DNA of 64,000 nucleotides from Blastomonas fulva. Lineage in GTDB: Bacteria; Pseudomonadota; Alphaproteobacteria; Sphingomonadales; Sphingomonadaceae. The stretch spans positions 3,386,501-3,450,500 of the forward strand of contig NZ_CP020083.1 of the NCBI RefSeq assembly GCF_003431825.1, read 5' to 3'. Under the pieces are notes generated by a model. It saw nothing but the letters and a program-made list of their open reading frames with translations, did no database searches and was not told where the DNA came from. The translations under genes and the position numbers were made by a program. This document shows positions 2,154 to 29,975 of the stretch, piece by piece (positions within the stretch are counted from its first letter, which is position 1; each line of letters begins with the position of its first letter).

Positions 2154-3230
2154 TCAGCCGGGCTTCCGCGCCGCCGGGCGGCGGCGCGGAGCCGCATCGG
2201 ATTGCCTGCGGATCAGCTCGTAGTCGGCAAGGACATGCGCTGGCTGGTCCGCAGCAGACGCCTTGCCGTTGCGGATGGTGCGCACCAGCAGTTCGACCGC
2301 GCGGCGCGACATTTCGATCACCGGTTGGCGGATTGTGGTGAGCTCGGGCCAGATGGTGGTGGCAAGCGCGGTGTCGTCAAACCCGCACACAGTCAGGTCG
2401 CCCGGAACGTCGAGCCCCTTGCGGTGCGCGATGGCGACCGTCGCCGCCGCCATGTCGTCGTTCGCAGCAAAGATCGCGGTGGGCGGGTCGGCGCTGTCGA
2501 GCAGCAGATCGGCGGCATCCAGCCCCGAGCGGTACGTGAACATGCCCTCTGCCACCAGCTCCGACCCCGTGGTCAGCCCTGCATCCTTGAGCGCGGCCCT
2601 ATAGCCCTCCAGACGCTCGGCGCTGGCGGTCTGGTTGGGGTTTCCGGTGATGAAGCCGATACGCACATGGCCCAGCTGGATCAGATGCCGGGTCATGTCA
2701 TAGGCGGCCTGGCGGTCGTCGATGCTTACCGACAGCGCCCAGTCGGGGGCGCGGCCCGTGGCAACCGCAACGACTGGAATCCCGCGCGCTTCCAGCGCCG
2801 ACAGGATCGGCAGCGAGTCGCTGAGCGGCGGCGGCAGCACAACGCCATCAATGCGGCCGCGCAGCAGATGATCGACCGCAGCCGCCTCGCCGCCATCGTC
2901 GTCGCATTTCTCGACCACCAGATGCACGTTGCTGCGGCTGGCCTGATCGAGGCTGCCCACCAGAAACTCGCTCAGATAGGCAAAGGACGGGTTGGAATGC
3001 AGCAGACCGATGCGGATGTCGTCGCCCCCGGCGAGCGTTCGCGCCGCGACATTGGGCGCATAATTCAACGCGGCAATCGCCTCTTCCACCCGGAGACGGG
3101 TGTCATCGCGGACGTTGCTTTCGCCGTTGATCACGCGGCTCACGGTCATCGGGGAAACCCCCGCTTGGGCCGCCACGTCGCTGATCGTGGGAACGTTGCG
3201 CTGACGCCTTGGGCCTCGAGGTTCCTTCAT
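2154..3230 (-). CDS. LacI-family transcriptional regulator (probable xylan-locus repressor)
   Basis: DNA-binding regulator of 358 residues. The N-terminal helix-turn-helix reads TISDVAAQAGVSPMTVSRVI (about residues 13-32), the usual LacI/GalR signature, followed by the hinge and a periplasmic-binding-protein-like sugar domain. The start chosen is the ATG giving MKEPRGPRR; an upstream in-frame ATG at 3299 would add 23 residues not typical of the family. It lies 96 bp downstream of the GH67 gene on the same strand and is probably co-transcribed with it. It is the natural candidate to bind the four 14-bp palindromes at 5498, 16803, 17005 and 21840. Binding itself is inference. Confidence 0.9.
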   Translation of the reverse strand: MKEPRGPRRQRNVPTISDVAAQAGVSPMTVSRVINGESNVRDDTRLRVEEAIAALNYAPNVAARTLAGGDDIRIGLLHSNPSFAYLSEFLVGSLDQASRSNVHLVVEKCDDDGGEAAAVDHLLRGRIDGVVLPPPLSDSLPILSALEARGIPVVAVATGRAPDWALSVSIDDRQAAYDMTRHLIQLGHVRIGFITGNPNQTASAERLEGYRAALKDAGLTTGSELVAEGMFTYRSGLDAADLLLDSADPPTAIFAANDDMAAATVAIAHRKGLDVPGDLTVCGFDDTALATTIWPELTTIRQPVIEMSRRAVELLVRTIRNGKASAADQPAHVLADYELIRRQSDAAPRRRPAARKPG

Positions 3231-3326
3231 GCACGGTCTTTCAGGCGAATATCCATAACCGCCCTTTAGCCGCGCTGCCGCGGAAAGGCGAGATGGCAAG
3301 AATGACGGCCAGCCCCGGTTCTGGCG

Positions 3327-5420
3327 CTATTTGGGATTGCCCGGTGCAAACGGAAAGCTCTGCTGCCTGTACCACTCAAGATCGTGCTGCGGCGCGGCCG
3401 ATCCATTGGGCAACGGCAGGCCGTTGATCGACATCCAGTACGCCAGGCTCGCATCGCGCCACCACCGGGCCTCGCGCTGCTGCACGCCCAGAAACGCATC
3501 GGTCTTGGTCCAGCGCTCGGCATCAATCCGTGGCCTGAGCGTCGCCCATTGGCTGCGCATCGAGTCCACTTCTGCCACGCCGCGGTCATAGCGGCGCACC
3601 ATTTCCTCCCACAGCGTGTTGCCAGCGGGCATCTTGTAGTCCCAGGGCAGATGGTGGAACCACAAGAGTTCTTCGGGCGGTGTGGTCTTCGGGTCGGCAT
3701 AGCGCCTGGCAAGCACCGGCGCATATTGCGCGACCGCGTTGCTGCCGGTGCGGGTGCGATCGAATCCGATCCCCTGCCTGTCCGCGCGGTGATAATAGAC
3801 CGGGTTCCATTCGGGCCGGGCCAGATCGGACACCCACGGCCCGGGCCCGTAATGGTGACCGGTGGCGAACAGATGCGCCAGCCCCAGCGGCCCGGTATAA
3901 TCGACCACCGCCTCGCGCGAGCGCATCATCATCGCGACCACGGTGTCGATGACGACCGGATCGTTGCCGAAGGTCTGCGCCGCCCATTCGCGGGCTATGG
4001 CCTCTGACGAGAGCGAAGGGTCCCAGGCCATCCGCCCAAACACATACCAGTTGGCCTGGTTGAACGTGCCCCCGGACCAGTCCCGGTCGCGCCCGATATT
4101 GGCGACCCCCGCCATCCCGCTGAGGGAATGGCCGTCGGCCTTGCCGGTGACCACCGAGGCCACGGTTTCTCCCCGCCGCACGCCAGTCTGCGCATCGAGC
4201 ACCTCCTCGAACAGCGGGCCGAGATAGGCCAGATGCGTCGCGAAGCCGAGATACTCCTTGGTGATCTGGAACTCGGCGATCAGCGGTGTTCTGGGCATCG
4301 CGCCGAAAAGCGGGTGGAACGGTTCGCGCGGCTGGAAATCGATCGCTCCGTTCTTGACCTGGACCAGGACATTGTCGGCGAAGCTGCCATCGAGCGGCTT
4401 GAACTCGGTATAGGCCTGCTTGGCGCGATCTTCGGGGTCGGTGTCGGCATAGACGAACGCGCGCCACATCACGATGCCATTATGCGGTTTGACCGCCGCC
4501 GCCAGCATGTTGGCGCCATCGGCATGACTGGCACCATAATCACGCGGGCCGGGCTGCCCCTCGCTGTTGGCCTTGACCAGAAAACCGCCGAAATCGGGGA
4601 TCGCGCGATAGATCTCGTCCGCCTTGGCCTTCCACCACGCCGCCACCGCCGGGTCGCGCGGATCGGCTGTTTTCAACCCTCCGAGCTCGATCGGTGCGGA
4701 AAAACGCGCCGATAGATAGACCCGGATGCCATAAAGGCGAAAAACATCGGCCAACGCTGCAGCCTTGGCGATATAGGGTGCGGTCAGGCTGTCAGCCTTG
4801 GCGTTGACGTTATTGAGCACGGTGCCGTTGATGCCGATCGAGGCATTGGCGCGGGCATAATCCGCATAGCGCGGGTCCTTGAAGTCGGGCAGCACCCACC
4901 AGTCCCAAAGCGACTGGCCCGAATAGCCGCGCTCGACCACCCCATCGAGATTGTCCCAATGGTTCAGAATGCGCAGCTTCGTCTGCGGCGAAGAGGCAAG
5001 GTCGATGTTCGCGATATCGCCGCCGCTGTTGATATGCCGCAGCAGCGCAAAGGCGCCGTAGAGCACGCCGACATCGACCGAACCGGTGACCAGCAGCACC
5101 TCGCGGCCCGCCACCTGCGCCCGCCGCACAGCATAACCTTCGGAGCCCAGGCTTCGGGCATCGAGCCGCAGACCGGCGAGCGCGGCATCGTCGGCTCTGG
5201 CGACCACGACCGGAACCGACAGCGCGGGTAGGTTGCGCCGGAGTTCGTCAGCGGCCAGCCGCAGCGTTTCCGATTCGCCCCTTACCTCGACCCCGGAGCG
5301 CGCCTGCGTCGTCGCCCCCTCGCCCAGCCACAGCCGATAGCCGTCATCGGCAACGGCGGGACTGGCCAGCACAAGCGCGGCGCAGGCCCAGAGCGGGTTC
5401 TGCAGAGTGAACAGTTTCAT
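3327..5420 (-). CDS. aguA: GH67 alpha-glucuronidase
   Basis: Releases 4-O-methyl-glucuronic acid or glucuronic acid from the non-reducing end of xylo-oligosaccharides. The protein has 697 residues, the normal size for GH67. The expected catalytic residues are all present: the proton donor Glu287 in KANSEGQPGP, and the base pair Asp361 (GAIDFQPREP) and Glu383 (AEFQITKEY). The N-terminus MKLFTLQNPL... with a cut after AVA looks like a Sec signal peptide, so a periplasmic location is likely. The start at 5420 has a clear GGGAGAGG ribosome site; longer in-frame versions lack one. It is divergent from the GH3 operon and shares with it an operator at 5498-5511. Confidence 0.95.
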   Translation of the reverse strand: MKLFTLQNPLWACAALVLASPAVADDGYRLWLGEGATTQARSGVEVRGESETLRLAADELRRNLPALSVPVVVARADDAALAGLRLDARSLGSEGYAVRRAQVAGREVLLVTGSVDVGVLYGAFALLRHINSGGDIANIDLASSPQTKLRILNHWDNLDGVVERGYSGQSLWDWWVLPDFKDPRYADYARANASIGINGTVLNNVNAKADSLTAPYIAKAAALADVFRLYGIRVYLSARFSAPIELGGLKTADPRDPAVAAWWKAKADEIYRAIPDFGGFLVKANSEGQPGPRDYGASHADGANMLAAAVKPHNGIVMWRAFVYADTDPEDRAKQAYTEFKPLDGSFADNVLVQVKNGAIDFQPREPFHPLFGAMPRTPLIAEFQITKEYLGFATHLAYLGPLFEEVLDAQTGVRRGETVASVVTGKADGHSLSGMAGVANIGRDRDWSGGTFNQANWYVFGRMAWDPSLSSEAIAREWAAQTFGNDPVVIDTVVAMMMRSREAVVDYTGPLGLAHLFATGHHYGPGPWVSDLARPEWNPVYYHRADRQGIGFDRTRTGSNAVAQYAPVLARRYADPKTTPPEELLWFHHLPWDYKMPAGNTLWEEMVRRYDRGVAEVDSMRSQWATLRPRIDAERWTKTDAFLGVQQREARWWRDASLAYWMSINGLPLPNGSAAPQHDLEWYRQQSFPFAPGNPK

Positions 5421-5497
5421 CGATCCTCTCCCGTGTCGCCATGCATCTTGCACTGACGTTGGCCAACAGCATTGACAAGCCGTTGTTGTGCCGTGCA

Positions 5498-5511
5498 TGT
5501 TAGCGGTATCA
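5498..5511. promoter_or_regulatory. LacI-type operator between aguA and the GH3 operon
   Basis: Imperfect palindrome TGTTAGCGGTATCA (reverse complement TGATACCGCTAACA). It is one of four related 14-mers in this locus and lies 78 bp upstream of the aguA start and 51 bp upstream of the GH3 start, so it could control both directions. It resembles the xyl-box (TGGTAGCGCTAACA) described for xylan genes of Xanthomonas. Confidence 0.7.
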
Positions 5512-5561
5512 TGGCGACAACATCAATATAAATGTTGCGCGGTTCGGGTAGGGAGAGAGCG

Positions 5562-7970
5562 TTGACCCAGGGTAGAGTCACGAGCGGCACACTGAGCCGC
5601 CGCGAGATGTTTTGCTGGAGCGCATCGGCTTCCCTGCTGGCGATGATGCCCCTGGCCGCGCGCGCGGCAACCCCGATCTACCGCGACCCTGCCGCCCCTA
5701 TCGACCTCAGGGTCGACGATCTGCTCTCGCGGATGACGCTGGACGAAAAGGTCGCGCAGCTGATCACGCTGTCGCGCACCAAGCGCGACGTGATGGACGA
5801 TGCACTGGCGTTCGATCCGGCAAAGGCATCCGCCGCCTATCCCCACGGATTCGGCCAGGTCGCCCGCCCCTCCGACCGGGGTGGCGCGGCCACTGCCAAC
5901 AACAATCCGGCGGGTCCGGCAATCGCCGCCCCGACCGGGCGTTGGCGCGCGCCCGCAGACACGATCGCCTTCATCAATGCTGCGCAAAAATGGGCGCGGT
6001 CGACTAGGCTGGGCATCCCAATCCTATTTCACGAGGAGTGCCTGCACGGCTACATGGCACCGACCGCGACCAGCTTCCCGCAGGCGATTGCGCTCGCAGG
6101 AACCTTCGACCGCAACCTGATGGAAAAGGTCAGCTCGGTCATCGGCCGCGAGGTGCGCGCGCATGGCGGAATTCTGGCATTGTCGCCGGTGGTGGACATC
6201 GCCCGCGACCCGCGCTGGGGCCGGATCGAGGAAACCTTTGGCGAGGACCCGTATTTGTGCGGCGAGATGGGCATCGCCGCCGTCCTGGGGCTGCAGGGGC
6301 GCAGCAAAATCCTCGCCCCGGGCAAGGTGTTCGCGACGCTCAAGCACATGACCGGGCACGGTCAGCCCGAAAGCGGCGAGAATGTCGCCCCTGCCCCGCT
6401 CGCTGAACGCGAATTGCGCGAGCGCTTCTTCCCGCCCTTCCGCAAGATCGTGAAGCAGACCGGGATCGCCGCCGTGATGCCATCGTACAACGAGATCGAC
6501 GGCGTGCCGAGCCACGCCAACCGCTGGCTGCTGGGCGACGTGCTGCGCGGCGAATGGGGTTTCGACGGCCTGATCGTCAGCGACTATGCCGCGATCGGCG
6601 AGCTTGCCTCGCTGCACCATGTCGCGCCCGATATGGCAGCAGCTGCACGGCTGGCATTGATCGCCGGAGTGGACAGCGATCTGCCCGATGGCGAGGCCTT
6701 CCGCACGCTGGGCGACCAGGTGCGTGCTGGCAAGGTTCCGCTGGCTTTGGTCGATCAGGCCTGCCGCCGGATGCTGACGCTCAAGTTCCGCGCCGGGCTG
6801 TTCGAGGCCGCACCGGTCGATGCTCGCGCTGCCGCCAAGCTCACCGCCAATGCCGAAGCTCTGGCGCTCGCTCGGACATCTGCCGAAAAGGCGATCACGC
6901 TGCTGACCAACGACGGCACGTTGCCGCTCAAGCCCGGCGCGCACGAGCGCGTTGCGGTGATCGGGCCGAATGCTGCGGTCGCACGGCTGGGCGGCTATTC
7001 CTCGCTGCCCACCAACCCCGTCTCATTGCTCGACGGCGTCAAGGCGCGGTTGAAGAACCAGGCCGAGGTCATTTTCGCGCAGGGCGTGTTCATCACGCAG
7101 AGCGAGGACCGCTCGGCCAACGAGATCCTGCTCGCCGACCCGGCAAGGAACCGCCAGCTGATCGCCGAGGCTGTCGAGGTCGCGAAGACATGCGATGTCA
7201 TCCTGCTGGCGATAGGCGATACCGAGCAGACCAGCCGCGAGGGCTTTGCCAAGAACCATCTGGGCGACCGCACCAGCCTTGATCTAGTGGGCGAGCAGAA
7301 CGAGCTGTTCGAGGCGATAAAGGCGACCGGCAAGCCCGTGGTCGTGATCGCGATCAACGGTCGCCCGCCCTCCTGGCCAACGGTGGCGGAACAGGCCAAT
7401 GCGCTTCTCGAGTGCTGGTACATGGGCCAGCAGGGCGGCCATGCGATGGCAGCGTCCTTGTTCGGCGATGTGAACCCCGGCGGCAAGCTGCCGGTGACGG
7501 TCGCGCGGCATGTCGGTCAGGTGCCGGTGTTCTACGACGCCAAGCCCTCGGCACGCCGCGGCTATCTTTTCGACACCACCGACCCGCTGTTCCCGTTCGG
7601 CCACGGCCTCAGTTACACCCGCTTCGAGCTGAGCGCGCCGCGTCTCTCCACCTCACGCATCGGACCGGGTGCCGGCGTTACCGTATCGGTCGATGTCGCC
7701 AACGTCGGCGATCGCGAAGGCGACGAGGTCGTGCAACTCTATATCCGCGATCAGGTCGCTTCGGTCACCCAGCCGATCAAGGTGCTCAAAGGCTTCCAGC
7801 GAGTCACGCTCAAGCCGGGCGAGCGCAGGACCGTTGCCATTGTGCTCGAACCCGATGCTTTTGCCATCTGGAACGACCAGATGCGCGAGGTCGTCGAGCC
7901 CGGGCTGTTCGACATCATGACCGGCCCCGACAGCCGCAACCTTCAAACCGTTACCCTCGAAATCGCCTAA
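5562..7970 (+). CDS. GH3 glycoside hydrolase (beta-xylosidase/beta-glucosidase), TTG start, Tat-like signal
   Basis: Exo-acting glycosidase that removes terminal beta-linked xylose or glucose from oligosaccharides. The domains are a GH3 N-terminal TIM barrel, a second alpha/beta domain and a C-terminal fibronectin-III-like domain (about residues 680-800). The nucleophile is the Asp in [10 protein letters not shown] (about residue 341). The start is taken as TTG at 5562 because GGGAGAG ends 4 bp before it; an in-frame ATG at 5532 has no ribosome site. The N-terminus then contains [15 protein letters not shown], resembling a twin-arginine export signal, cut after ARA. It is the first gene of a five-gene unit continuing into manD. 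Context favours beta-xylosidase, but family membership does not settle the substrate. Confidence 0.92.
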
Positions 7971-7978
7971 GGATCACC

Positions 7979-9190
7979 ATGCCCAAAATCGTCGATGCCC
8001 GCGTCATCATCACCTGCCCGGGCCGCAACTTCGTCACGCTCAAGATCATCTGCGACGACGGCACCACCGGCGTCGGCGATGCGACGCTCAACGGACGCGA
8101 ACTTTCGGTCGCGAGCTATCTGACCGACCATGTCATCCCCTGCCTGATCGGCCGCGATGCGCATCGGATCGAGGATATCTGGCAGTATCTCTACAAGGGT
8201 GCGTACTGGCGGCGCGGGCCGGTGACGATGAGCGCGATCGCCGCGGTCGACACCGCTTTGTGGGACATCAAGGGCAAGATCGCTGGGCTCCCCGTCTACC
8301 AGCTGCTCGGCGGGGCGAGCCGCGAGAACGTCATGGTCTACGGCCATGCCAATGGCACCACAATCGAGGACACGATCGCGGTCGCGCTCGACTACCAGCG
8401 CCAGGGCTACAAGGCGATCCGCCTGCAGTGCGGCGTCCCCGGAATGGCATCGACCTATGGCGTCAGCAAGGACCGCTATTTCTACGAACCCGCCGATGCC
8501 GACCTGCCCACCGAGAACGTTTGGAACACCAGCAAATATCTGCGCGTGGTGCCCGAACTGTTCAAGGCGGCGCGCGAGGCTCTGGGCTGGGACGTGCACC
8601 TGCTGCACGACATCCACCACCGGCTGACCCCGATCGAGGCGGGGCGGCTGGGCAAGGACCTTGAGCCCTATCGCCCGTTCTGGCTGGAGGATGCGACCCC
8701 TGCCGAGAACCAGGAAGCCTTCAAGCTGATCCGTCAGCACACAACCGCGCCGCTGGCTGTCGGCGAGATTTTCAATTCGATCCACGACTGCCGCGAGCTG
8801 ATCCAGAACCAGTTGATCGACTATATCCGCGCCACCGTAGTACACGCAGGCGGCATCACTCATTTGCGCCGCATTGCGTCGCTCGCCGATCTGTATCAGA
8901 TCCGCACCGGCTGCCACGGCGCGACCGACCTCTCTCCGGTGTGCATGGCCGCAGCTTTGCACTTCGACCTGTCGGTGCCCAATTTCGGGGTGCAGGAATA
9001 TATGCGCCACACGCCCGAAACCGACGCGGTCTTCCCGCACGCCTACACCTTTGCCGACGGCGCGATGCATCCCGGTGACGAGCCCGGCCTTGGCGTCGAT
9101 ATCGACGAGGAACTCGCCGCCGGTTACGAATACAGCCGCGCCTTCCTGCCGGTGAACCGGCTGGAAGATGGCACGATGTATAACTGGTGA
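7979..9190 (+). CDS. manD: D-mannonate dehydratase, enolase superfamily (ManD/RspA-like)
   Basis: Cytoplasmic enolase-superfamily dehydratase of 403 residues, the standard ManD length. The Mg2+ ligands are in place: Asp211 in LLHDIHH, Glu237 in FWLEDATP and Glu263 in AVGEIFNS. His213 next to the first ligand and Tyr160 match the acid/base pair of characterised ManD proteins. It would convert D-mannonate to 2-keto-3-deoxy-D-gluconate, the step that channels glucuronate released by the alpha-glucuronidase into central metabolism. Some relatives prefer D-gluconate or are nearly inactive, so substrate is not certain. It begins 8 bp after the GH3 stop, and its stop overlaps the next start (GTGA). 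Confidence 0.92.
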
Positions 9191-21942: not shown

Positions 21943-22953
21943 TCAGGGCTTGGCGCTGCTCTTGGCGGGGTTGCGCATCGGGCCAAACGGGCCGAAGCGG
22001 TGCTGCTCGCTGGAGAAATCGTCGGCATAGGGGCCATAAGGCGCGTCCACCGGCTTTTCCTCGAGCCGGGGATAATCCCGCTCGAGCCCGGCGCGCTGTG
22101 GGCGCGGCTGGCTGTTGATATAGGCGGCGACGTCGAAGGCCTGCTCCTCGGATAGCACCGGCGCCTGCCAGCCGGTGCCAAGCGGCATGTTGCTGCGGAT
22201 GAAACCGGCAGCGGTGGTGACCCTGCCCATGCCTGCGCCATTGTTGTAGCTGTCCGCACCCCACAGCGGCGGATAGGTATAGCCCTTCGCATCCCCGGCC
22301 TTGCCCGCACGCTGCCCTGCGCCATCGCTGCCATGGCAGACCGCGCAATGCTGGGCATAGACCGCCTTGCCGCGCACCGGATCCGCCGCGCGGGCAAGGT
22401 CGGCCAGCTTGACCGACCCGCGCCCCTCGGTCGGCGCGCCCACCGGCCGACCGCTGCTCAGGAATTTGAGATAGGCGACGATCGCCACCATATCCTTGCC
22501 GCCTTCAGGTAACGCCTTGCCGTTCATGCTGCGCGTCATGCAGCCGTTGACCCGGTCCTCGATGGTGTTCACGCGGCCCGACCGGCCCCTGTATTGCGGA
22601 AAGTCGGCGAACACGCCGACCAGCGGCAGGCCAAACTGCTGGGTGCCCGCCTGCAGATGGCAGCTCTGGCAATTGAGGTTGTTGCCCGACAGCCGCCTTG
22701 CAGGGTCCGCCACCTCTGGCCCGATCGCCGCGGCTGTCTGGGCGATCAGATCGCGCCCGTGGCGAACGGTGCGACCCCAGGGATCATCGGGCAGCGCATC
22801 GATATCGGGAACGGACCAGGCTGCAGGGGTGGCGGCAGGCTGCCCTGTGTCCGCATCCTTGCTGACCTGAGCATCGGGGCGCAGCGCCATCGCCACAGCG
22901 ACGCCGGCGGCAAAAACCGCAACCCCAGTCATCGCTTTTGCTGCTGTGCCCAT
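21943..22953 (-). CDS. Diheme c-type cytochrome (TsdA-like)
   Basis: Periplasmic or membrane-anchored electron carrier of 336 residues. An N-terminal hydrophobic segment (about residues 8-24) precedes two heme-binding motifs, CQSCH (95-99) and CAVCH (203-207). Between them lies NGCMTRSMNGKALP, the form seen in thiosulfate-dehydrogenase/SoxA-type diheme cytochromes, where the Cys (here 138) can ligate a heme. That suggests a TsdA-like thiosulfate dehydrogenase or a related electron-transfer protein, but no sulfur-oxidation gene is nearby. It stands alone: the GH43 operon starts after it and the next gene is divergent. Confidence 0.8.
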   Translation of the reverse strand: MGTAAKAMTGVAVFAAGVAVAMALRPDAQVSKDADTGQPAATPAAWSVPDIDALPDDPWGRTVRHGRDLIAQTAAAIGPEVADPARRLSGNNLNCQSCHLQAGTQQFGLPLVGVFADFPQYRGRSGRVNTIEDRVNGCMTRSMNGKALPEGGKDMVAIVAYLKFLSSGRPVGAPTEGRGSVKLADLARAADPVRGKAVYAQHCAVCHGSDGAGQRAGKAGDAKGYTYPPLWGADSYNNGAGMGRVTTAAGFIRSNMPLGTGWQAPVLSEEQAFDVAAYINSQPRPQRAGLERDYPRLEEKPVDAPYGPYADDFSSEQHRFGPFGPMRNPAKSSAKP

Positions 22954-23269: not shown

Positions 23270-23896
23270 TTGAAAAAAGAAACGCTATCCCGGGTCGTTT
23301 TCTGCCTCGCCGGTCTCACCATGCTGCCTACCACCGCGTACGCAGAATCCCGCTTTGTCACCGGTACGAGCAGCCCGCTCACGGCGACGGCCAACCTCGA
23401 TTTCACCATCACTATTCCCAAGTTTGTCTACCTTCGCGTCGGCACCGGGACTTCGATGGCCACCAGCACGACCGTGGACAATCTGGTCTACACCGTGCCT
23501 GCCGCCAATGTGGGTGATGGAACCGCGATCTCCGGCACCGGGGGCGACCTCACTGGTGGCCAGGTGACCGCTCGTGTCATGGGCAACAACGGAACGATCG
23601 CGTTCAGCTCATCGACCCTGGGTGCGATGAGCAACGGCGCGGGCGACACGATTTCGTGGTCGCAGATGAACGTCGGCGTGACCACCAACACATCCGCAAC
23701 CGCGCTCAGCCATCCCAGCCTGGTCGATGGCAGCACGACAAGCATCAACCTGCCAACCACCAGCGGCACAAAGGTTACCAACCTCGATGCGCGCTGGACC
23801 TTCACCTATCGCAACGACAATGTCGTGGCGGCAGGCACCTATGGTGGCGTCAACGCCAACAATGGTCGCGTGACCTACGGCGTTTCGATGCCGTAA
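23270..23896 (+). CDS. Small exported pilin-like protein (putative main fibre subunit), TTG start
   Basis: Unrecognised exported protein of 208 residues. The signal peptide MKKETLSRVVFCLAGLTMLPTTAYA is followed by a beta-rich, Thr/Ser/Gly/Asn-rich, cysteine-free body and a C-terminus ending NGRVTYGVSMP. The start is TTG at 23270, with GGAG eight bases upstream. The mature N-terminus (RFVTGTSSPLTATANLDFTI, then TIPKFVYLRV) is closely echoed in the protein at 24086. The composition and the chaperone and outer-membrane genes downstream suggest a fibre subunit. The strong terminator that follows would let it be made in excess of the downstream genes. Function is inferred from context only. Confidence 0.7.
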   Translation: MKKETLSRVVFCLAGLTMLPTTAYAESRFVTGTSSPLTATANLDFTITIPKFVYLRVGTGTSMATSTTVDNLVYTVPAANVGDGTAISGTGGDLTGGQVTARVMGNNGTIAFSSSTLGAMSNGAGDTISWSQMNVGVTTNTSATALSHPSLVDGSTTSINLPTTSGTKVTNLDARWTFTYRNDNVVAAGTYGGVNANNGRVTYGVSMP

Positions 23897-23955
23897 TCAC
23901 GCGCTTGAGGGCGCGCTGCCGCACAGCGGCCGTTTACCAGATTTCTACAGGTCTT

Positions 23956-23987
23956 AAGCCGTCGCAACCAGTGTTGCGGCGGCTTTT
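23956..23987 (+). terminator. Rho-independent terminator after the first subunit gene
   Basis: 13-bp stem AAGCCGTCGCAAC / GTTGCGGCGGCTT (one T-G wobble), loop CAGT, then TTTT. It lies 60 bp after the stop of the 208-aa subunit and separates it from the downstream operon. Confidence 0.88.
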
Positions 23988-24085
23988 ACCATTTCGCGCA
24001 ACCAAAATGCTGAACCCGGCGTTGACGTAAATCGTCGATCACGACAAAGTGAATTTTCACGCAAATCGGGACAGTTAGCTGACAC

Positions 24086-24565
24086 ATGCAAAAGGGCACA
24101 ACATTCGCGATCAGCCTCGTGCTTGCCGCCAGTGCCCTGGCCGAATCCGCATATGCCGCCTCGCACTTCGAGACGGGCAAGGAAGCCCCGCTGGCCGCAT
24201 CGGTGCGGTTGAATTTCACGATCCTGATCCCGGAAATCCTGACCTTGCGGATCGACCCGCGCAACGCCGCTACAGATGCACTTCAATCGCCATGGGCATT
24301 GCGTGTTCCCGCCATGGCGGTGCGCGCCGATGGCCTGGAGCCCGATCCCACGACGCTTCCGCGTGCAGTTGCCTCGAGCAATGCCGGAACCCTGGCGACC
24401 GGCACCGGCGCCGCTCAATCCACGCATCCGGGCGAAGGCGCGCAGGCCAGTCCGCCCGTGCAAGTGTCGCTAGCGCAGCCCGACGATAGGCCGCTTTTGC
24501 GCAGCATCGAGCCCACTGTATCTTTAGACACACACTCTGCCGCATTTCTGGTTGCGCTGCCCTGA
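24086..24565 (+). CDS. Short paralogue of the fibre-subunit protein
   Basis: Exported protein of 159 residues with signal peptide MQKGTTFAISLVLAASALAESAYA. Its mature start, SHFETGKEAPLAASVRLNFT followed by ILIPEILTLRI, lines up with that of the 208-aa protein at 23270 (shared pattern F-TG---PL-A---L-FTI-IP----LR). The remainder is shorter, lacks the AGTY...GRVTY ending of the larger subunits, and instead ends AAFLVALP. It may be a specialised subunit (tip, adaptor or terminator) or a copy that is decaying. No strong ribosome site is visible before the ATG. Confidence 0.6.
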   Translation: MQKGTTFAISLVLAASALAESAYAASHFETGKEAPLAASVRLNFTILIPEILTLRIDPRNAATDALQSPWALRVPAMAVRADGLEPDPTTLPRAVASSNAGTLATGTGAAQSTHPGEGAQASPPVQVSLAQPDDRPLLRSIEPTVSLDTHSAAFLVALP

Positions 24566-24635
24566 TTTTACTTTGGCGCACAATGTGATGTGATTATATC
24601 CCCCCAAATCGACGTTTCCCCGGGGGGGGAGTATA

Positions 24636-25319
24636 ATGAATTCAAGGCACGTTCCTGCCTTCGCGCATGTCCTGCGCGAAACGGCGCAGCGCAATCCGAA
24701 ACTCCGTATCGGGGCCGGCATCCTCGCGCTGTCTGCTGCGCTGGTTCCGGCGGCGCCGGCTCATGCCTATACCATCACCATCTCCTCTGGCTCGCGCGCG
24801 ATCTATCTCCAGGTCGGTCAAGGCGGCTATTCAGGCACGCACTCCAATGGCGGCACCCCCGGCAACAATGGCACGGTGAACACCGTTTCGGTCTCGGTCC
24901 CGGCGGGCGTCGTCGCATCGGGAACGGCGCAGCAGATGACCTCCAACAGCACGGTATCGCAAAGCCCGATTGACGGCTTCGTCTTCTGCACCCCTCCCTC
25001 GCAGGTCTATATCGGCGCATGGTCGCGACCCGGCGGCACGAGCTCTGGCGTCGCGACGCTCACCGTGACCACGCCTGCCAACCTCACCAGCGGTTCGGAC
25101 ACCATCCCCTTCAGCCAGATCAGCTGGACCATGTCCGGTATCGGCGACACCGTCTTCCAGTTCCCCAATGGCAGCTTCACCGGCGGAACCCAGACATTGG
25201 CGACCTTCCCGGCGAACACCTGGAAGGAGCAGTGCATGACCTTCCAGTACGCCAACTCGGTGCTTCCGGCGGCGGGAACCTATACCGGCCGCGCGGTCTA
25301 CACCCTGTCGCTGCCATGA
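24636..25319 (+). CDS. Exported pilin-like protein with two cysteines
   Basis: Exported protein of 227 residues. A long N-terminal region with hydrophobic core (GAGILALSAALVPAAPAHA) forms the signal peptide. The mature part is Gly/Thr/Ser-rich and beta-rich, with two Cys residues (in FVFCTPPSQ and KEQCMTFQY) that could form a disulfide. It ends SVLPAAGTYTGRAVYTLSLP, the same kind of ending as the 208-aa subunit. A GGGGGGGGA ribosome site lies just before the ATG. Its stop overlaps the next start (ATGA), so it is translationally coupled to the 164-aa protein, the chaperone and the outer-membrane protein. Probably a second fibre subunit. Confidence 0.7.
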   Translation: MNSRHVPAFAHVLRETAQRNPKLRIGAGILALSAALVPAAPAHAYTITISSGSRAIYLQVGQGGYSGTHSNGGTPGNNGTVNTVSVSVPAGVVASGTAQQMTSNSTVSQSPIDGFVFCTPPSQVYIGAWSRPGGTSSGVATLTVTTPANLTSGSDTIPFSQISWTMSGIGDTVFQFPNGSFTGGTQTLATFPANTWKEQCMTFQYANSVLPAAGTYTGRAVYTLSLP

Positions 25320-25810
25320 TGCGCCTGTTCGCCCTTGCCCTCGCGTGCTGCCTGAGCGCCGCGCTGACCGCCCCTGCCCTAGCGCAGACGGTAGCCGCGC
25401 CGGACCCCGGCGTGCGCACCTTCCGCGTCGACGACAGCGGGACGGTGGTGCTCGATCCGTTTCTGGAAATGCAATGGCAGCCAAGCGGGCCTGCCGGCGC
25501 ATCCAACATCGTGTCGGCGAGCACGCGGGTCAGCGTCCAGCTTAATCTTGCGACCTGGGTCGGCCAGGTGGGCCGCATCTACATGACCCTGCCGCGCTCC
25601 AGCGGCCCGACCGTGCGCGCCAGCTGGCGCACCGGTGGCGGCCTGCTGGCGGGATCGCTGATCTCGGGCGAGCGTGCGTTGGTCTATTCCGGCCCGATCG
25701 GTTCGCCGATCTTGCGCGATATCATCGACCTCAGGCTCGAGGTGGACAGCGCACGGCTTGCGGGCCCCGAATCCCTGTCGTTCGGCTTTGAGATAGAGTT
25801 GGCCCCATGA
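25316..25810 (+). CDS. Small exported protein of the fibre operon
   Basis: Unrecognised exported protein of 164 residues. The signal peptide MMRLFALALACCLSAALTAPALA is clear; the mature part is cysteine-free and beta-rich, ending SLSFGFEIELAP. It overlaps the preceding subunit gene and the following chaperone gene by four bases each (ATGA both times), so all are made from one message in linked amounts. It could be a minor subunit or a tip protein. ATG at 25316 or 25319 could be used; the first is adopted. Confidence 0.7.
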   Translation: MMRLFALALACCLSAALTAPALAQTVAAPDPGVRTFRVDDSGTVVLDPFLEMQWQPSGPAGASNIVSASTRVSVQLNLATWVGQVGRIYMTLPRSSGPTVRASWRTGGGLLAGSLISGERALVYSGPIGSPILRDIIDLRLEVDSARLAGPESLSFGFEIELAP

Positions 25811-26667
25811 CATCCAGCATCGTGACCGCACCTGCGCGCCGTCTTGTTTTCCTTGCTTTCGCAATCGTTTGTTGGCTGGCGCCGCTGCCTGCCCAGGCGG
25901 GGGACTTTGCGCTGTCGCTCGCCCCGCCCAGATTTGAACTGGCCGCCAATCCCGGGCAGACCGTGCGCGGCGTCGCCGAACTGGCCAATGCCGCCGACAC
26001 CGCCGCCGACCTCCGCTTCGAAACCGCCGAATGGGATCTGACCCCCGATGGCGGCGTGGTGCTGGGTAACTCGCTCAAGCCCGATTCCTGCCGCCCATGG
26101 GTGTCGATCGAGCGCCGCCAGACCGTACTGCAGGCCAAGGGCCAGCTGCGCTATCGCTTCGAGGTAACCCCACCTGCCGATACGCCGCCGATGGAGTGTC
26201 GCTTTGCCATCGTGATCTCGAGCAACGAACAGCGCCTGTCGCCGGCGGATGGTGTGAGCGTGCCGGTGGTCGCCCAGCTGGCGCTGATCGTTTATGTGAC
26301 GGTGGGCGACATCAAGCCCAATCTGCGCATCGTGAAGGTGGACGTCGCCGACATCAACGGCACGCCGACACCGGTGCTGATGGTCGAGAACACCGGACTT
26401 GCGCATGGCCGCCTGTCCGCGTTTCTGCGCGGCAAGGATGCCAAGGGCGTCCTGCGCGAGTTCGCCCCCGCCACGCTGCCGATCCTGCCCGGAGAAACCC
26501 GGCGTATCGCACTCAACGTCGACAAGGGCGGCGACGCGATCGAGGCGCGCGAGCGGCCAGAACAGCCGGGTCGAGAGGCCGATCCGATCGCGTTCCCCCT
26601 GACGATAAGCGGCACGATCAATGATTCCGTGAGCTCGTTCCAGTTCGACGGTGTGTTCGAACCCTGA
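25807..26667 (+). CDS. PapD-like periplasmic fimbrial chaperone
   Basis: Periplasmic chaperone of 286 residues. After the signal peptide (ending LPAQA) come two immunoglobulin-like domains. The first strand reads FALSLAPPRFELAANPGQTV, with an Arg where pilus chaperones carry the subunit-anchoring Arg. Typical chaperone pieces follow: DLRFETAEWDLTPDG, CRPWVSIERRQ, and the second domain beginning VAQLALIVYVTVGD...LRIVKVDV. In chaperone-usher systems such proteins cap subunits until the outer-membrane usher assembles them. It is somewhat longer than classical chaperones (about 230-250) because of an Arg/Glu-rich insertion near residues 240-260. Confidence 0.85.
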   Translation: MTSSIVTAPARRLVFLAFAIVCWLAPLPAQAGDFALSLAPPRFELAANPGQTVRGVAELANAADTAADLRFETAEWDLTPDGGVVLGNSLKPDSCRPWVSIERRQTVLQAKGQLRYRFEVTPPADTPPMECRFAIVISSNEQRLSPADGVSVPVVAQLALIVYVTVGDIKPNLRIVKVDVADINGTPTPVLMVENTGLAHGRLSAFLRGKDAKGVLREFAPATLPILPGETRRIALNVDKGGDAIEARERPEQPGREADPIAFPLTISGTINDSVSSFQFDGVFEP

Positions 26668-26676
26668 TGCCACACG

Positions 26677-28980
26677 ATGCGCGGTGACCGATCGGCATAT
26701 CCTGCACGCGGGCGGCTGCTGCGACCGGCGCTGACGCTGATCGCAAGCGTCGCAGCGTCGAGTCCGCCGCTGCTCGCCCAGACGGCACAGGAAAGCGCGC
26801 CCGACGAAGGCGCCGCGGACCAAGCCTATGTCGACCGGCTGATCGATGGCGGCTCCCTGCCTGAACAGACCAAGGCGGGCGAGGACAGCAACATCAATCG
26901 CAAGGGCAACCTGCGCTCGCTGGTGGTCGAACTGGGCGGTTCGCGCATCGTGCCCAAGGCCCGGATCGAGGGGCTCGATGTCTCCGCATTCGATCAGGTG
27001 CAGGAAGAGCTCGGGCTCACGGTTTCGGGCCGCTACCAGACGATCAACTACGGCATGCTGGGCATCGACGCGCAGCTGCGCACCGGCACCGCGGCGCGCG
27101 CCTTCACCGCCTCGCAGGGCAGCGGCTTCAACGGCGCACTCACCCTGTCCAGCACTGGCCTGCCTCTTGGCAATGGCTGGGTGGTCGACAGCAGCGTCGG
27201 CAATGTCGCCACCCAATCGATCGACCTGCTGCGCCGCCAGCAGCGGTTCTTCATCCCGACATCCCCGTTGCTCGGCGGATCGGTGCAGTTCAACAGCTTT
27301 GCCCCGCTCTCGGTGCTCACCGCAGGGCTCGATCCCGAGCCTGTTGCCAGCTTCAATCTGGCGGTGGGTGAGCCCGGGCTGCTGGGCGGCATCCGACTGG
27401 GCAATTTTTCCAGCCTGTCGGGCCTCAGCATGACTGCAGGCGGCCAGGCCGATGTGGGTCCGGGCGTATCGCTGGGCTTTCAGGCCATCGCGGTCGATGA
27501 CAGCCGCGATCCCTTTGCGATCATTCTGGCCACCGGCCCGGCGCAAGGCCAGGACCGCCTTTCGTCGCAAGGCGCGCTGGCCAGCGTAAAGGTCGAGAGG
27601 GATGGCTTCCAGCTGCAGACCAACACCATCTGGTCGAACCTCAGCGGCAACCCGGACCCCAATTTCGTGTTCCGCGAGACCGGCAAAGCGGGCGGTTTCT
27701 GGCTGGACGCAAGCCTGCGCCGGGGCCGCGCGGCGCATAGCGGCGGCTTCTATTACTTCGATCCCGGGCTGGCCTGGGGCACAGCGGCGATCGTCAACAA
27801 CGCCTATGGCGCCTATTACCGATTTTCGGTTTCGTCGCAGCGCTGGCGCTGGACGGCGAGCGTGGATGCGGTGGAATCGGTCAACGGGCAAAGCTCCAGC
27901 GGCATCCTGGCCAATGTCGATGTCCGGCGGCAGCTGACCTTCCGCATGGCAGCGGGGCTCAACACCACGCTGCGGGTCGCCAACGGCCAGACCGCCAGCC
28001 AGCTGCTGGCATTTTTCGATCTGGCCTCCGATGTCGGAACCACCCGCATCGAGGCAGGGTGGAGCCACGATCCAGCATCGGACTTCTACCGCATCGGATG
28101 GAACCAGAACTGGACGCTCCCGGCCTGGCTTCCCTCGGGCAGCAGGCTGAGCACCCAGCTGTCGTTCGATCACCGCCGGATGCTGCAGCAAGCGATCGTG
28201 CCGGGCGATCCTGCCGGGGTCGAACGCGGCAACAGCATCGGCATCGGCATCAGCGGCGGCGCCAACCCGTTCACCGGTATCACCGTCGATGCGACGCTTG
28301 CCTATCGCAGCAACGCCAGCCGCTCGGCCCAGTCGCTGTTCGGCCCGGTCGATTCGACCGGAGGCGTGCTCGATGTGCTGGCATCGCAGCAGGACCAGGC
28401 GTTCTCGGCGACGCTGGTGGCCACCGCGCGGCTGTCGTCGAGCTGGACGCTGACCGCATCGTTCACCGATACGCGCTCGAGCCTGCTCAGTCGCAACGGG
28501 CTGATCGGCCAGGCGACCTCTCCGCTGGGCTTCACGCCCGAGGAGATCGCCCGCATCCAGCGCAGCTCGTTCCGCCTGCAGGCCGGATCGATCTCGCTGC
28601 AATATGTGTTCTCGGGCGGGCGCGCGCAGGGCGTGCTGGGGCGGCCCGAATATCCGGTGGGGGGAACAGGCTCGCTGCGAGGCCGCGTGTTCCTGGATGC
28701 CAACGCCAATGGCGTGCGCGATGCCGACGAGCGCGGCGTGCCCGATATCATCGTCATTCTGGATGGCCTGCAGGCGGTGCGCACCGATGCGATGGGGCTC
28801 TACCGGTTCGAAGGCGTCATCGACGGTCGTCACCAGGTAACGGTCAACGCGGATGCGCTGCCTTTGCCCTGGTCCATTGTCTCCGACCCCGCCACCAGCC
28901 GCAACGGCAACTATGCCGCAGCCATCGCCATGCAGGTGCGATCGGTGACCGAACTCGATATCCCGGCTATTCGCGAGTGA
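26677..28980 (+). CDS. Usher-like outer-membrane protein with C-terminal SdrD-B-like domain
   Basis: Exported protein of 767 residues. After the signal region (ending PPLLAQ) come a short linker and about 570 residues of alternating amphipathic strands typical of an outer-membrane barrel. The last about 100 residues form a separate domain opening GSLRGRVFLDANANGVRDAD, with a D-x-N-x-x-G-x-x-D-x-x-E-x-G calcium-loop pattern of SdrD-B/CnaB domains. It takes the place of the usher beside the chaperone but I cannot recognise classical FimD/PapC plug or N-terminal-domain motifs. The C-terminal beta-domain might play the role of an usher's C-terminal domain. It ends with a 14-bp tail-to-tail overlap with fdhD. 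Confidence 0.75.
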   Translation: MRGDRSAYPARGRLLRPALTLIASVAASSPPLLAQTAQESAPDEGAADQAYVDRLIDGGSLPEQTKAGEDSNINRKGNLRSLVVELGGSRIVPKARIEGLDVSAFDQVQEELGLTVSGRYQTINYGMLGIDAQLRTGTAARAFTASQGSGFNGALTLSSTGLPLGNGWVVDSSVGNVATQSIDLLRRQQRFFIPTSPLLGGSVQFNSFAPLSVLTAGLDPEPVASFNLAVGEPGLLGGIRLGNFSSLSGLSMTAGGQADVGPGVSLGFQAIAVDDSRDPFAIILATGPAQGQDRLSSQGALASVKVERDGFQLQTNTIWSNLSGNPDPNFVFRETGKAGGFWLDASLRRGRAAHSGGFYYFDPGLAWGTAAIVNNAYGAYYRFSVSSQRWRWTASVDAVESVNGQSSSGILANVDVRRQLTFRMAAGLNTTLRVANGQTASQLLAFFDLASDVGTTRIEAGWSHDPASDFYRIGWNQNWTLPAWLPSGSRLSTQLSFDHRRMLQQAIVPGDPAGVERGNSIGIGISGGANPFTGITVDATLAYRSNASRSAQSLFGPVDSTGGVLDVLASQQDQAFSATLVATARLSSSWTLTASFTDTRSSLLSRNGLIGQATSPLGFTPEEIARIQRSSFRLQAGSISLQYVFSGGRAQGVLGRPEYPVGGTGSLRGRVFLDANANGVRDADERGVPDIIVILDGLQAVRTDAMGLYRFEGVIDGRHQVTVNADALPLPWSIVSDPATSRNGNYAAAIAMQVRSVTELDIPAIRE

Positions 28981-29770
28981 GCGGCTGACCCATTTCGAGC
29001 AGGCTGTCGTGCCGCGCGAGGCTGACCAGCCTCAGCCCATGCGCCGCGGCCTGATCGGCTGCGAGCGTCGATGCAGCTGAGATCGTCACCAGCAACGGCG
29101 CCCCTGCAATCACCGCCTTTTGCACCAGCTCGAAGCTGCACCGCGCGGTGAGCAGGATGAAATGGTCGCCGACGTTCAACCCCTGGCGCGCCGCGGCACC
29201 AAGCAATTTGTCGAGCGCATTGTGCCGGCCGATATCCTCTCGCACCAGCAGGATGCTGCCATCGGCTGCGCACAACGCTGCAGCGTGCGCGGCGCGCGTT
29301 ACCTTGCCCAGGATCTGCCAATCGCCCAGTGCACCTGCCGCGCGGAACATGGCAGCGGGTTCGACGTCCAGCGTCGCTGCAACCCGGGCGAGCGGACGCA
29401 TCACCTGTTCCAGGCTTTCGATCCCGCACAGCCCGCAGCTCCCCTCGGCCAGCCGCAACCGCGCCCGCTCGATCAGCGGCGCAGCGTTGGCGACCGCGAG
29501 CTGCACGCGCAGCACCCATCCACCCGCCTCGACCGGCGCGGCAAAGGCCGAGACCATCTCGGCCGGTGATGCTATCAACTGTTCGGACAGGCAAAAGCCC
29601 ATCGCATAGTCTTCCAGATCCGATGGCGTCGCCATCATCACCGCATAGCCAAGCCCATTGATCTCGATCGCGATCGGCGCTTCCTCCACAAGAGCACGCT
29701 CAATATCGCGCGGGGGCGATCCATCCGCGAAATGCTCGCGCAGGCCAAATGGTCGCGCGCCTTCAACCAT
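28967..29770 (-). CDS. fdhD: Formate dehydrogenase accessory sulfurtransferase FdhD
   Basis: Cytoplasmic protein of 267 residues that passes sulfur from the cysteine desulfurase to the molybdenum cofactor, needed for active formate dehydrogenase. The sulfur-carrying motif is GSCGLCG (Cys112 and Cys115). Other family pieces are DLEDYAMGFCLSE, REDIGRHNALDKLLG and SFELVQKAVIAG. The ATG at 29770 is chosen because it gives the usual length and overlaps the end of fdsD by 8 bp (ATGGTTGA), a sign of coupling; a longer version would run far into fdsD. Last gene of the formate dehydrogenase operon. Confidence 0.93.
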   Translation of the reverse strand: MVEGARPFGLREHFADGSPPRDIERALVEEAPIAIEINGLGYAVMMATPSDLEDYAMGFCLSEQLIASPAEMVSAFAAPVEAGGWVLRVQLAVANAAPLIERARLRLAEGSCGLCGIESLEQVMRPLARVAATLDVEPAAMFRAAGALGDWQILGKVTRAAHAAALCAADGSILLVREDIGRHNALDKLLGAAARQGLNVGDHFILLTARCSFELVQKAVIAGAPLLVTISAASTLAADQAAAHGLRLVSLARHDSLLEMGQPLTRE

Positions 29771-29975
29771 GCGTTGGTTCGAGGCCTGCGATCGCCGCTG
29801 CTGCGACCGGCTCGAGCACAGCATCGCTCTGACGGCGCAGTCCATCGATCATCCGGGGGCTCCAATAGGCGCGGATATGCGCGGCCACCGCGCCGACCGG
29901 ATCCTCGTCTAACGCGAGATTGCGCGCGATCTGGTTGGCCATGTGGACCAGCTTGTCATCGGTATACGCACTCAC
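29763..29975 (-). CDS. fdsD: Formate dehydrogenase delta subunit
   Basis: Small cytoplasmic protein of 70 residues matching the FdsD family: DDKLVHMANQIARNLA near the N-terminus and HIRAYWSPRMID in the middle. FdsD stabilises or helps mature the molybdenum-containing alpha subunit. It overlaps the end of fdsA by four bases and the start of fdhD by eight. Confidence 0.9.
   Translation of the reverse strand: MSAYTDDKLVHMANQIARNLALDEDPVGAVAAHIRAYWSPRMIDGLRRQSDAVLEPVAAAAIAGLEPTHG

What the first reader, a model, noticed from the sequence alone, without database searches (positions are those of the whole stretch)
23270..28980. Atypical chaperone/usher-like surface-fibre system
Two related small exported proteins, a third pilin-like protein with a putative disulfide, a fourth small exported protein, a PapD-like chaperone and a large barrel protein are consecutive; the last four genes overlap or nearly touch. 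The supposed usher has no recognisable FimD/PapC signatures and ends in an SdrD-B-like calcium-loop domain (DANANGVRDADERG). That domain could replace the C-terminal domain of a classical usher or be displayed on the surface. The subunits also do not look like standard fimbrins. This is the best candidate here for an undescribed secretion or adhesion machine.
Basis: partly seen in the sequence, partly recalled or inferred. Interest (0 to 1): 0.72.

Follow-up and report, generated by a model that had tools for sequence, protein, structure and literature searches.

The report
Stripped-down chaperone-usher pilus operon
Six neighbouring genes look like a machine that builds thin protein hairs on the cell surface in the manner of the known chaperone-usher pili, but with an outer-membrane gate that seems to lack several parts thought to be standard.

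Summary
Genes A-F (23270-28980) form a compact operon. A, B and C are one family of exported pilin-like subunits. A-type proteins carry an alternating donor-strand-like extension; C-type proteins lack it, so C is probably the tip. E is a PapD-family chaperone by profile comparison (98%; shuffled controls at most 2.1%). F is a large outer-membrane barrel whose 14 best Foldseek matches are ushers (low TM-scores); a second aligner ranks other barrels higher. Its 'SdrD_B' domain aligns with usher CTD1. F is too short for a folded N-terminal domain and CTD2, and its moderate model shows no plug. No scanned F (36), E (28) or subunit (45) protein matches a Pfam usher, PapD_N or pilin model. C-D-E-F order is kept in 29 of 29 usable loci (of 31), from sphingomonads to Lysobacter, yet the system is rare (3 of 397 genomes of the host's family). 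The genome has a separate, ordinary chaperone-usher locus. Best reading: a divergent chaperone-usher pathway with a reduced usher. Fibres are inferred, not shown; F's sequence link to ushers is weak and alignment-dependent; D's role is unknown.

The parts
23270..23896 (+). A: pilin-like subunit, 208 aa, TTG start, signal peptide, N-terminal donor-strand-like extension (about residues 26-48); probable major subunit
24086..24565 (+). B: short divergent subunit of the same family, 159 aa, with the extension; possible terminator or minor subunit (inference)
24636..25319 (+). C: subunit of the same family, 227 aa, two conserved cysteines, no N-terminal extension; predicted tip subunit
25316..25810 (+). 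D: small exported protein, 164 aa, conserved with the operon, no recognised family; minor subunit or assembly factor (inference)
25807..26667 (+). E: PapD-family periplasmic chaperone, 286 aa
26677..28980 (+). F: usher-like outer-membrane barrel, 767 aa: disordered tail with conserved YVDRLI motif (about 49-61), barrel about 80-647, CTD1-like SdrD_B domain about 664-767; no folded NTD, no CTD2, no plug in the model

Best explanation
The operon encodes a divergent chaperone-usher pathway with a reduced usher. Subunits A, B and C are exported with signal peptides (read from the sequence). Chaperone E holds each subunit by lending a beta-strand to its incomplete Ig-like fold (inferred from family membership). 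C has no N-terminal extension, so it can accept a donor strand but not give one, and would be the first, distal subunit. A, whose extension has the alternating hydrophobic pattern of a donor strand, would be the repeating subunit. B, a shortened relative that keeps the extension, might end or anchor the fibre (weak inference). F would recruit E-subunit complexes with its conserved disordered N-terminal tail instead of a folded NTD, hold the growing end with its periplasmic CTD1-like SdrD_B domain, and let the fibre out through its barrel. With no plug in the model, the pore would have to be closed by inward loops, for example around residues 231-238 (GEPGLLGG in sphingomonads; in distant members only some glycines are kept), or by the C-terminal domain (inference). 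D is a co-conserved exported protein of unknown role.
Confidence: 0.78

Rival explanations
1. F is a porin- or MtrB-like barrel with a C-terminal adhesive or structural domain, and E, A, B, C and D form a separate periplasmic or surface complex; no usher action takes place.
For: VIA-align ranks CymA and the Mtr-complex barrel above ushers; usher TM-scores are low; the barrel-only profile does not find ushers; no plug, NTD or CTD2 (and lengths).
Against: Foldseek's first 14 hits are ushers; the C-terminal domain aligns with usher CTD1; the order C-D-E-F is kept in 29 of 29 usable loci; E is a PapD-family protein.
Confidence: 0.12
2. It is an ordinary archaic or alternative chaperone-usher system that has drifted beyond profile recognition, and the F model merely fails to show a plug. 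(This overlaps with the best reading and differs mainly in the plug and in where the system branches.)
For: By profile alignment E lacks the two classical chaperone anchor residues, as reported for archaic chaperones (PMC4654587 passages); the F model is moderate; a cluster in another alphaproteobacterium (L095) has an E-like chaperone beside a larger usher that the usher profile recognises.
Against: F leaves only about 45 mature residues before its first strand and ends after the CTD1-like domain, so NTD and CTD2 are missing by length whatever the model; no Usher, TcfC, CooC_C or PapC_C match in 36 of 36 F proteins scanned; no SCPU, CS1 or Fimbrial match in 45 of 45 subunits scanned.
Confidence: 0.25
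3. The subunits are chaperone-dependent exported proteins that are not polymerised (for example a surface coat or secreted monomers).
For: No fibre has been shown; the scanned subunits match no Pfam pilin family.
Against: Alternating donor-strand-like stretch in 24 of 24 A-type proteins and its absence from 19 of 19 C-type; pilin-dominated structure matches.
Confidence: 0.08

Closest known systems
Archaic (sigma) chaperone-usher pili, such as Csu; a separate chaperone-usher locus, archaic by my reading, lies elsewhere in this genome (G000:C1, about 3.808-3.813 Mb)
   Same: PapD-family chaperone, Ig-like subunits with an N-terminal donor strand, large outer-membrane barrel, subunit genes before the chaperone and usher genes; the resident usher has a CarboxypepD_reg-type match at the same C-terminal place
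   Different: No PF00577 match, no folded NTD, no CTD2, no plug in the model; subunits lack SCPU similarity; A-type subunits have no cysteine
Alternative (alpha) chaperone-usher pili, such as E. coli Ecp (EcpC) and CFA/I
   Same: Non-classical chaperone; C-terminal CarboxypepD_reg-like domain in the usher (EcpC); a chain of a CFA/I chaperone-tip adhesin complex is the best VIA match of the A model
   Different: No TcfC or CooC_C match; different gene set with D; predicted tip subunit C is a single domain
Classical type 1 and P pili (FimD, PapC)
   Same: Best Foldseek matches of the F model; mechanism presumed alike
   Different: Classical chaperone anchor residues not found in E; folded NTD and CTD2 missing, plug missing in the model; no subunit similarity seen in the Pfam or PDB sequence searches

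Membership tests
Chaperone-usher pathway | PapD-family periplasmic chaperone encoded with the subunits | tested here: met
   hhalign 98.3% over 220 columns, controls at most 2.1%; E directly before F in 29 of 29 usable loci (split in L020)
Chaperone-usher pathway | Subunits with pilin Ig-like fold | tested here: inconclusive
Chaperone-usher pathway | N-terminal donor strand on polymerising subunits | tested here: met
   Alternating pattern in 24 of 24 A-type proteins; sequence pattern only, function not tested
Chaperone-usher pathway | Donor-strand exchange giving a surface fibre | not testable with these tools
   Needs biochemistry and microscopy
Usher (five-domain: barrel, plug, NTD, CTD1, CTD2) | Large outer-membrane beta-barrel with usher-like fold | tested here: inconclusive
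   About 26 strands; Foldseek top hits ushers with low TM-scores, VIA ranks CymA and the Mtr-complex barrel higher
Usher (five-domain: barrel, plug, NTD, CTD1, CTD2) | Folded N-terminal domain | tested here: not met
   About 45 mature residues before the first strand; residues 23-74 have pLDDT under 50
Usher (five-domain: barrel, plug, NTD, CTD1, CTD2) | Plug domain inside the barrel | tested here: not met
   Longest stretch between barrel strands in the model is 22 residues; no TcfC match in 36 of 36. Moderate-confidence model, so less certain than NTD and CTD2
Usher (five-domain: barrel, plug, NTD, CTD1, CTD2) | CTD1 | tested here: met
   F 669-767 aligns with FimD 706-795, directly before PapC_C 799-863; the end-to-end alignment scores 93.9%, other alignments less
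Usher (five-domain: barrel, plug, NTD, CTD1, CTD2) | CTD2 (PapC_C) | tested here: not met
   F ends after the CTD1-like domain; no PapC_C match in 36 of 36
Archaic (sigma) chaperone-usher systems | Usher recognised by PF00577 and SCPU-type pilins | tested here: not met
   None at E up to 1 in 36 F and 45 subunit proteins
Alternative (alpha) chaperone-usher systems | Usher with TcfC and CooC_C domains | tested here: not met
   None in 36 of 36; EcpC control shows both
Classical chaperone-usher systems | Two basic chaperone residues that anchor the subunit C-terminus | tested here: inconclusive
   By profile alignment the FimC Arg8 position holds E44 and the Lys112 position I161 of E (that these two are the anchor residues of FimC is recalled); an invariant Arg (R42) lies two residues away

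The most novel reading that the evidence does not exclude
F is the founding member of a separate branch of ushers that works with a 26-stranded, plug-free barrel, a short linear tail in place of the NTD and a single C-terminal domain, so that assembly and gating are done without three of the five domains regarded as standard; the system is a further chaperone-usher branch shared by sphingomonads, Lysobacter and relatives.
Probability: 0.42. Interest if true: 0.76.

Novelty: new variant of a known kind. Interest (0 to 1): 0.6.

Why it matters
Chaperone-usher systems are commonly recognised by their usher, and this operon shows that a whole conserved system can escape the Pfam models for usher, chaperone and pilin alike. 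If F works without plug, NTD and CTD2, it is a natural minimal usher with which to test which usher parts recruitment, gating and fibre assembly really need. It also gives a clear, checkable prediction, a tip subunit (C) marked simply by a missing donor strand, in environmental bacteria.

Tried and rejected
Pfam, NCBIfam and PDB sequence searches gave no family for A-E and only SdrD_B/CarboxypepD_reg-type domains for F. One weak PDB hit of the subunit profile to a streptococcal pilin backbone (E=0.0024) was not followed. The third protein-database search, with the mixed F profile, added one F fragment (P0225) and seven proteins that share only a small part with F. Surface display of SdrD_B was judged less likely: an even strand number puts both F termini on the periplasmic side (inference), and the domain aligns with CTD1. 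Looking for an insertion site failed: fdhD is kept in 7 of 9 genomes of the genus, the own one included, but in the stretches taken beside it in G679 and G207 no other of the ten window proteins tested was found. The Usher and PapD_N families each gave one match in this genome, at the separate locus and not at F or E. Distance correlation of C, D, E and F over 22 loci (0.90-0.96) was not used, because shared ancestry explains it. No paper describing this operon was found in nine searches of the held library, of which only listings were seen; of three papers passages were seen.

Errors of mine, corrected: one search used stop-to-stop ORFs and drew in shadow frames (redone). One search included wrong-strand sequences in the reference profiles and gave F only 11.8% against ushers, E 97.8% against chaperones (redone). 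The cleavage rule misplaced 6 of 22 A-type sites and 1 of 18 C-type sites and placed none in 2 and 1; one search repeats the count with the ES/DS and Y/F start.

Rows dropped before counts: L019 and L024 from the order count; the second half-match L047 from the usher set; in the B-like listing rows scoring 130 or more and those of L018, L022, L028; from the correlation all loci without all four proteins and the own-genome loci L001, L032. The iterated F alignment (29 rows) holds own-genome copies L001 and L032. A4 holds 19 C-type and 24 A-type proteins, not one from every locus.
Full report
Observation. C and D overlap by 4 bp, D and E by 4 bp, and E and F are 9 bp apart. Pfam and NCBIfam recognise only the SdrD_B domain of F, with a weaker CarboxypepD_reg match. 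The operon is flanked by ORFs on the other strand: a diheme-cytochrome-like one on the left (21943-22953) and an fdhD-like one on the right (28967-29845) (names by my reading).

Conservation. F has 104 database hits with E up to 0.001, 103 of them F-like (43-99% identity) and, where a source names the organism, mostly sphingomonads such as Blastomonas, Novosphingobium, Sphingomonas and Erythrobacter. A genome-contig scan gave 27 loci, 12 from sphingomonads or records labelled only as Proteobacteria/Pseudomonadota and 15 labelled Lysobacter, Steroidobacteraceae or Gammaproteobacteria, at 27-55% identity. In 29 of the 29 with enough upstream sequence C, D, E and F stand in this order on one strand; L019 and L024 start at contig ends. 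D is in two pieces in L011, E is in two pieces in L020, F is incomplete in L027, and L025 has extra subunit-like pieces between C and D. An A-type gene stands upstream in 24 of 29 and downstream of F in L011 and L012; in L005, L025 and L027 the contig begins nearby. The system is nevertheless rare: full-length F in 2 of 298 and 3 of 397 genomes of the host's family, in 1 of 9 of the genus, and in 3 of 398 drawn from the phylum, where 17 further genomes match only by the SdrD_B part. The draws overlap.

Chaperone. E has 1497 relatives with E up to 0.001, of which 120 were listed. Against a profile of 17 chaperones from the host's family plus FimC and EcpB, hhalign gives 98.3% (E=2.3e-14) over 220 columns, while A, C, D and F profiles give at most 2.5%. 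With A5 the value is 98.1%; twenty column shuffles give at most 2.1% and the reversed profile 0.4%. The alignment brings E residues 150-163 onto FimC's 101-114, its G1 donor strand (strand name recalled), and the positions of the two classical anchor residues hold E44 and I161. This fits the report that archaic chaperones lack these anchors (PMC4654587, passages). Against a simple reading, E resembles an orphan protein without a detected pilin or barrel neighbour as strongly (98.9%; the orphan itself matches the chaperone profile at 97.3%). No Pfam chaperone-usher chaperone model matches any of 28 E proteins at E up to 1; the only PapD-named match is the flagellar PapD-like family in 2 of 28.

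The SdrD_B domain. In the global alignment F 669-767 lies on FimD 706-795, directly before FimD's PapC_C match at 799-863. An ordinary usher of the same genome and EcpC show sub-threshold CarboxypepD_reg matches (E=3.7e-4 and 1.2e-4) at the corresponding C-terminal place; FimD shows none. All 36 F proteins scanned carry SdrD_B at E up to 1. The domain is therefore best read as CTD1. An even strand number puts it in the periplasm (inference).

Relation to known systems. The genome has a separate chaperone-usher locus with a PF00577 usher and a PapD_N chaperone. Another genome of the same class (L095) has an E-like chaperone next to an 872-aa protein that the reference usher profile recognises (97.5%), although Pfam shows only CarboxypepD_reg- and prealbumin-type domains in it. 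This suggests that Pfam-invisible systems form a wider range of which the window's operon is a reduced end (inference).

Mechanism and verdict. Shown by sequence: operon, conservation, one subunit family in two forms, PapD-family chaperone, no room for NTD and CTD2. Supported: pilin fold, usher-like barrel, CTD1, absence of a plug. Inferred: donor-strand exchange, C as tip, F's tail as recruiter (in classical systems the usher's N-terminal tail supplies about 60% of the NTD's chaperone-binding surface, PMC9452303 passages; F's tail keeps Y51, D53 and L61 in 36 of 36), gating without a plug, B as terminator. Unknown: D. I file the operon as a new variant of the chaperone-usher kind, not as a member of the classical, alternative or archaic families as these are now recognised.

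Noticed in passing
L095 (G532:C27:11000-20195), minus strand 2794-8406: Separate cluster: two pilin-like genes, an E-like chaperone, a 213-aa exported protein and an 872-aa usher with CarboxypepD_reg domains that Pfam does not call an usher.
   Followed up: partly
L091-L094: PapD/WxLIP-like proteins that match E but have no pilin, D or F match detected in the 14 kb around them.
   Followed up: partly
L037 (G000:C1:3805000-3818000), about 3265-8243: A separate, ordinary chaperone-usher locus in the window's own genome.
   Followed up: partly
L013 and L015 (JACKKX010000001.1): Two copies of the operon on one Novosphingobium MAG contig.
   Followed up: no
window 28967-28980: The 3' ends of F and the fdhD-like ORF overlap tail to tail by 14 bp.
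   Followed up: no
L011, L012: The full A-type subunit gene lies downstream of F instead of at the head of the operon.
   Followed up: no
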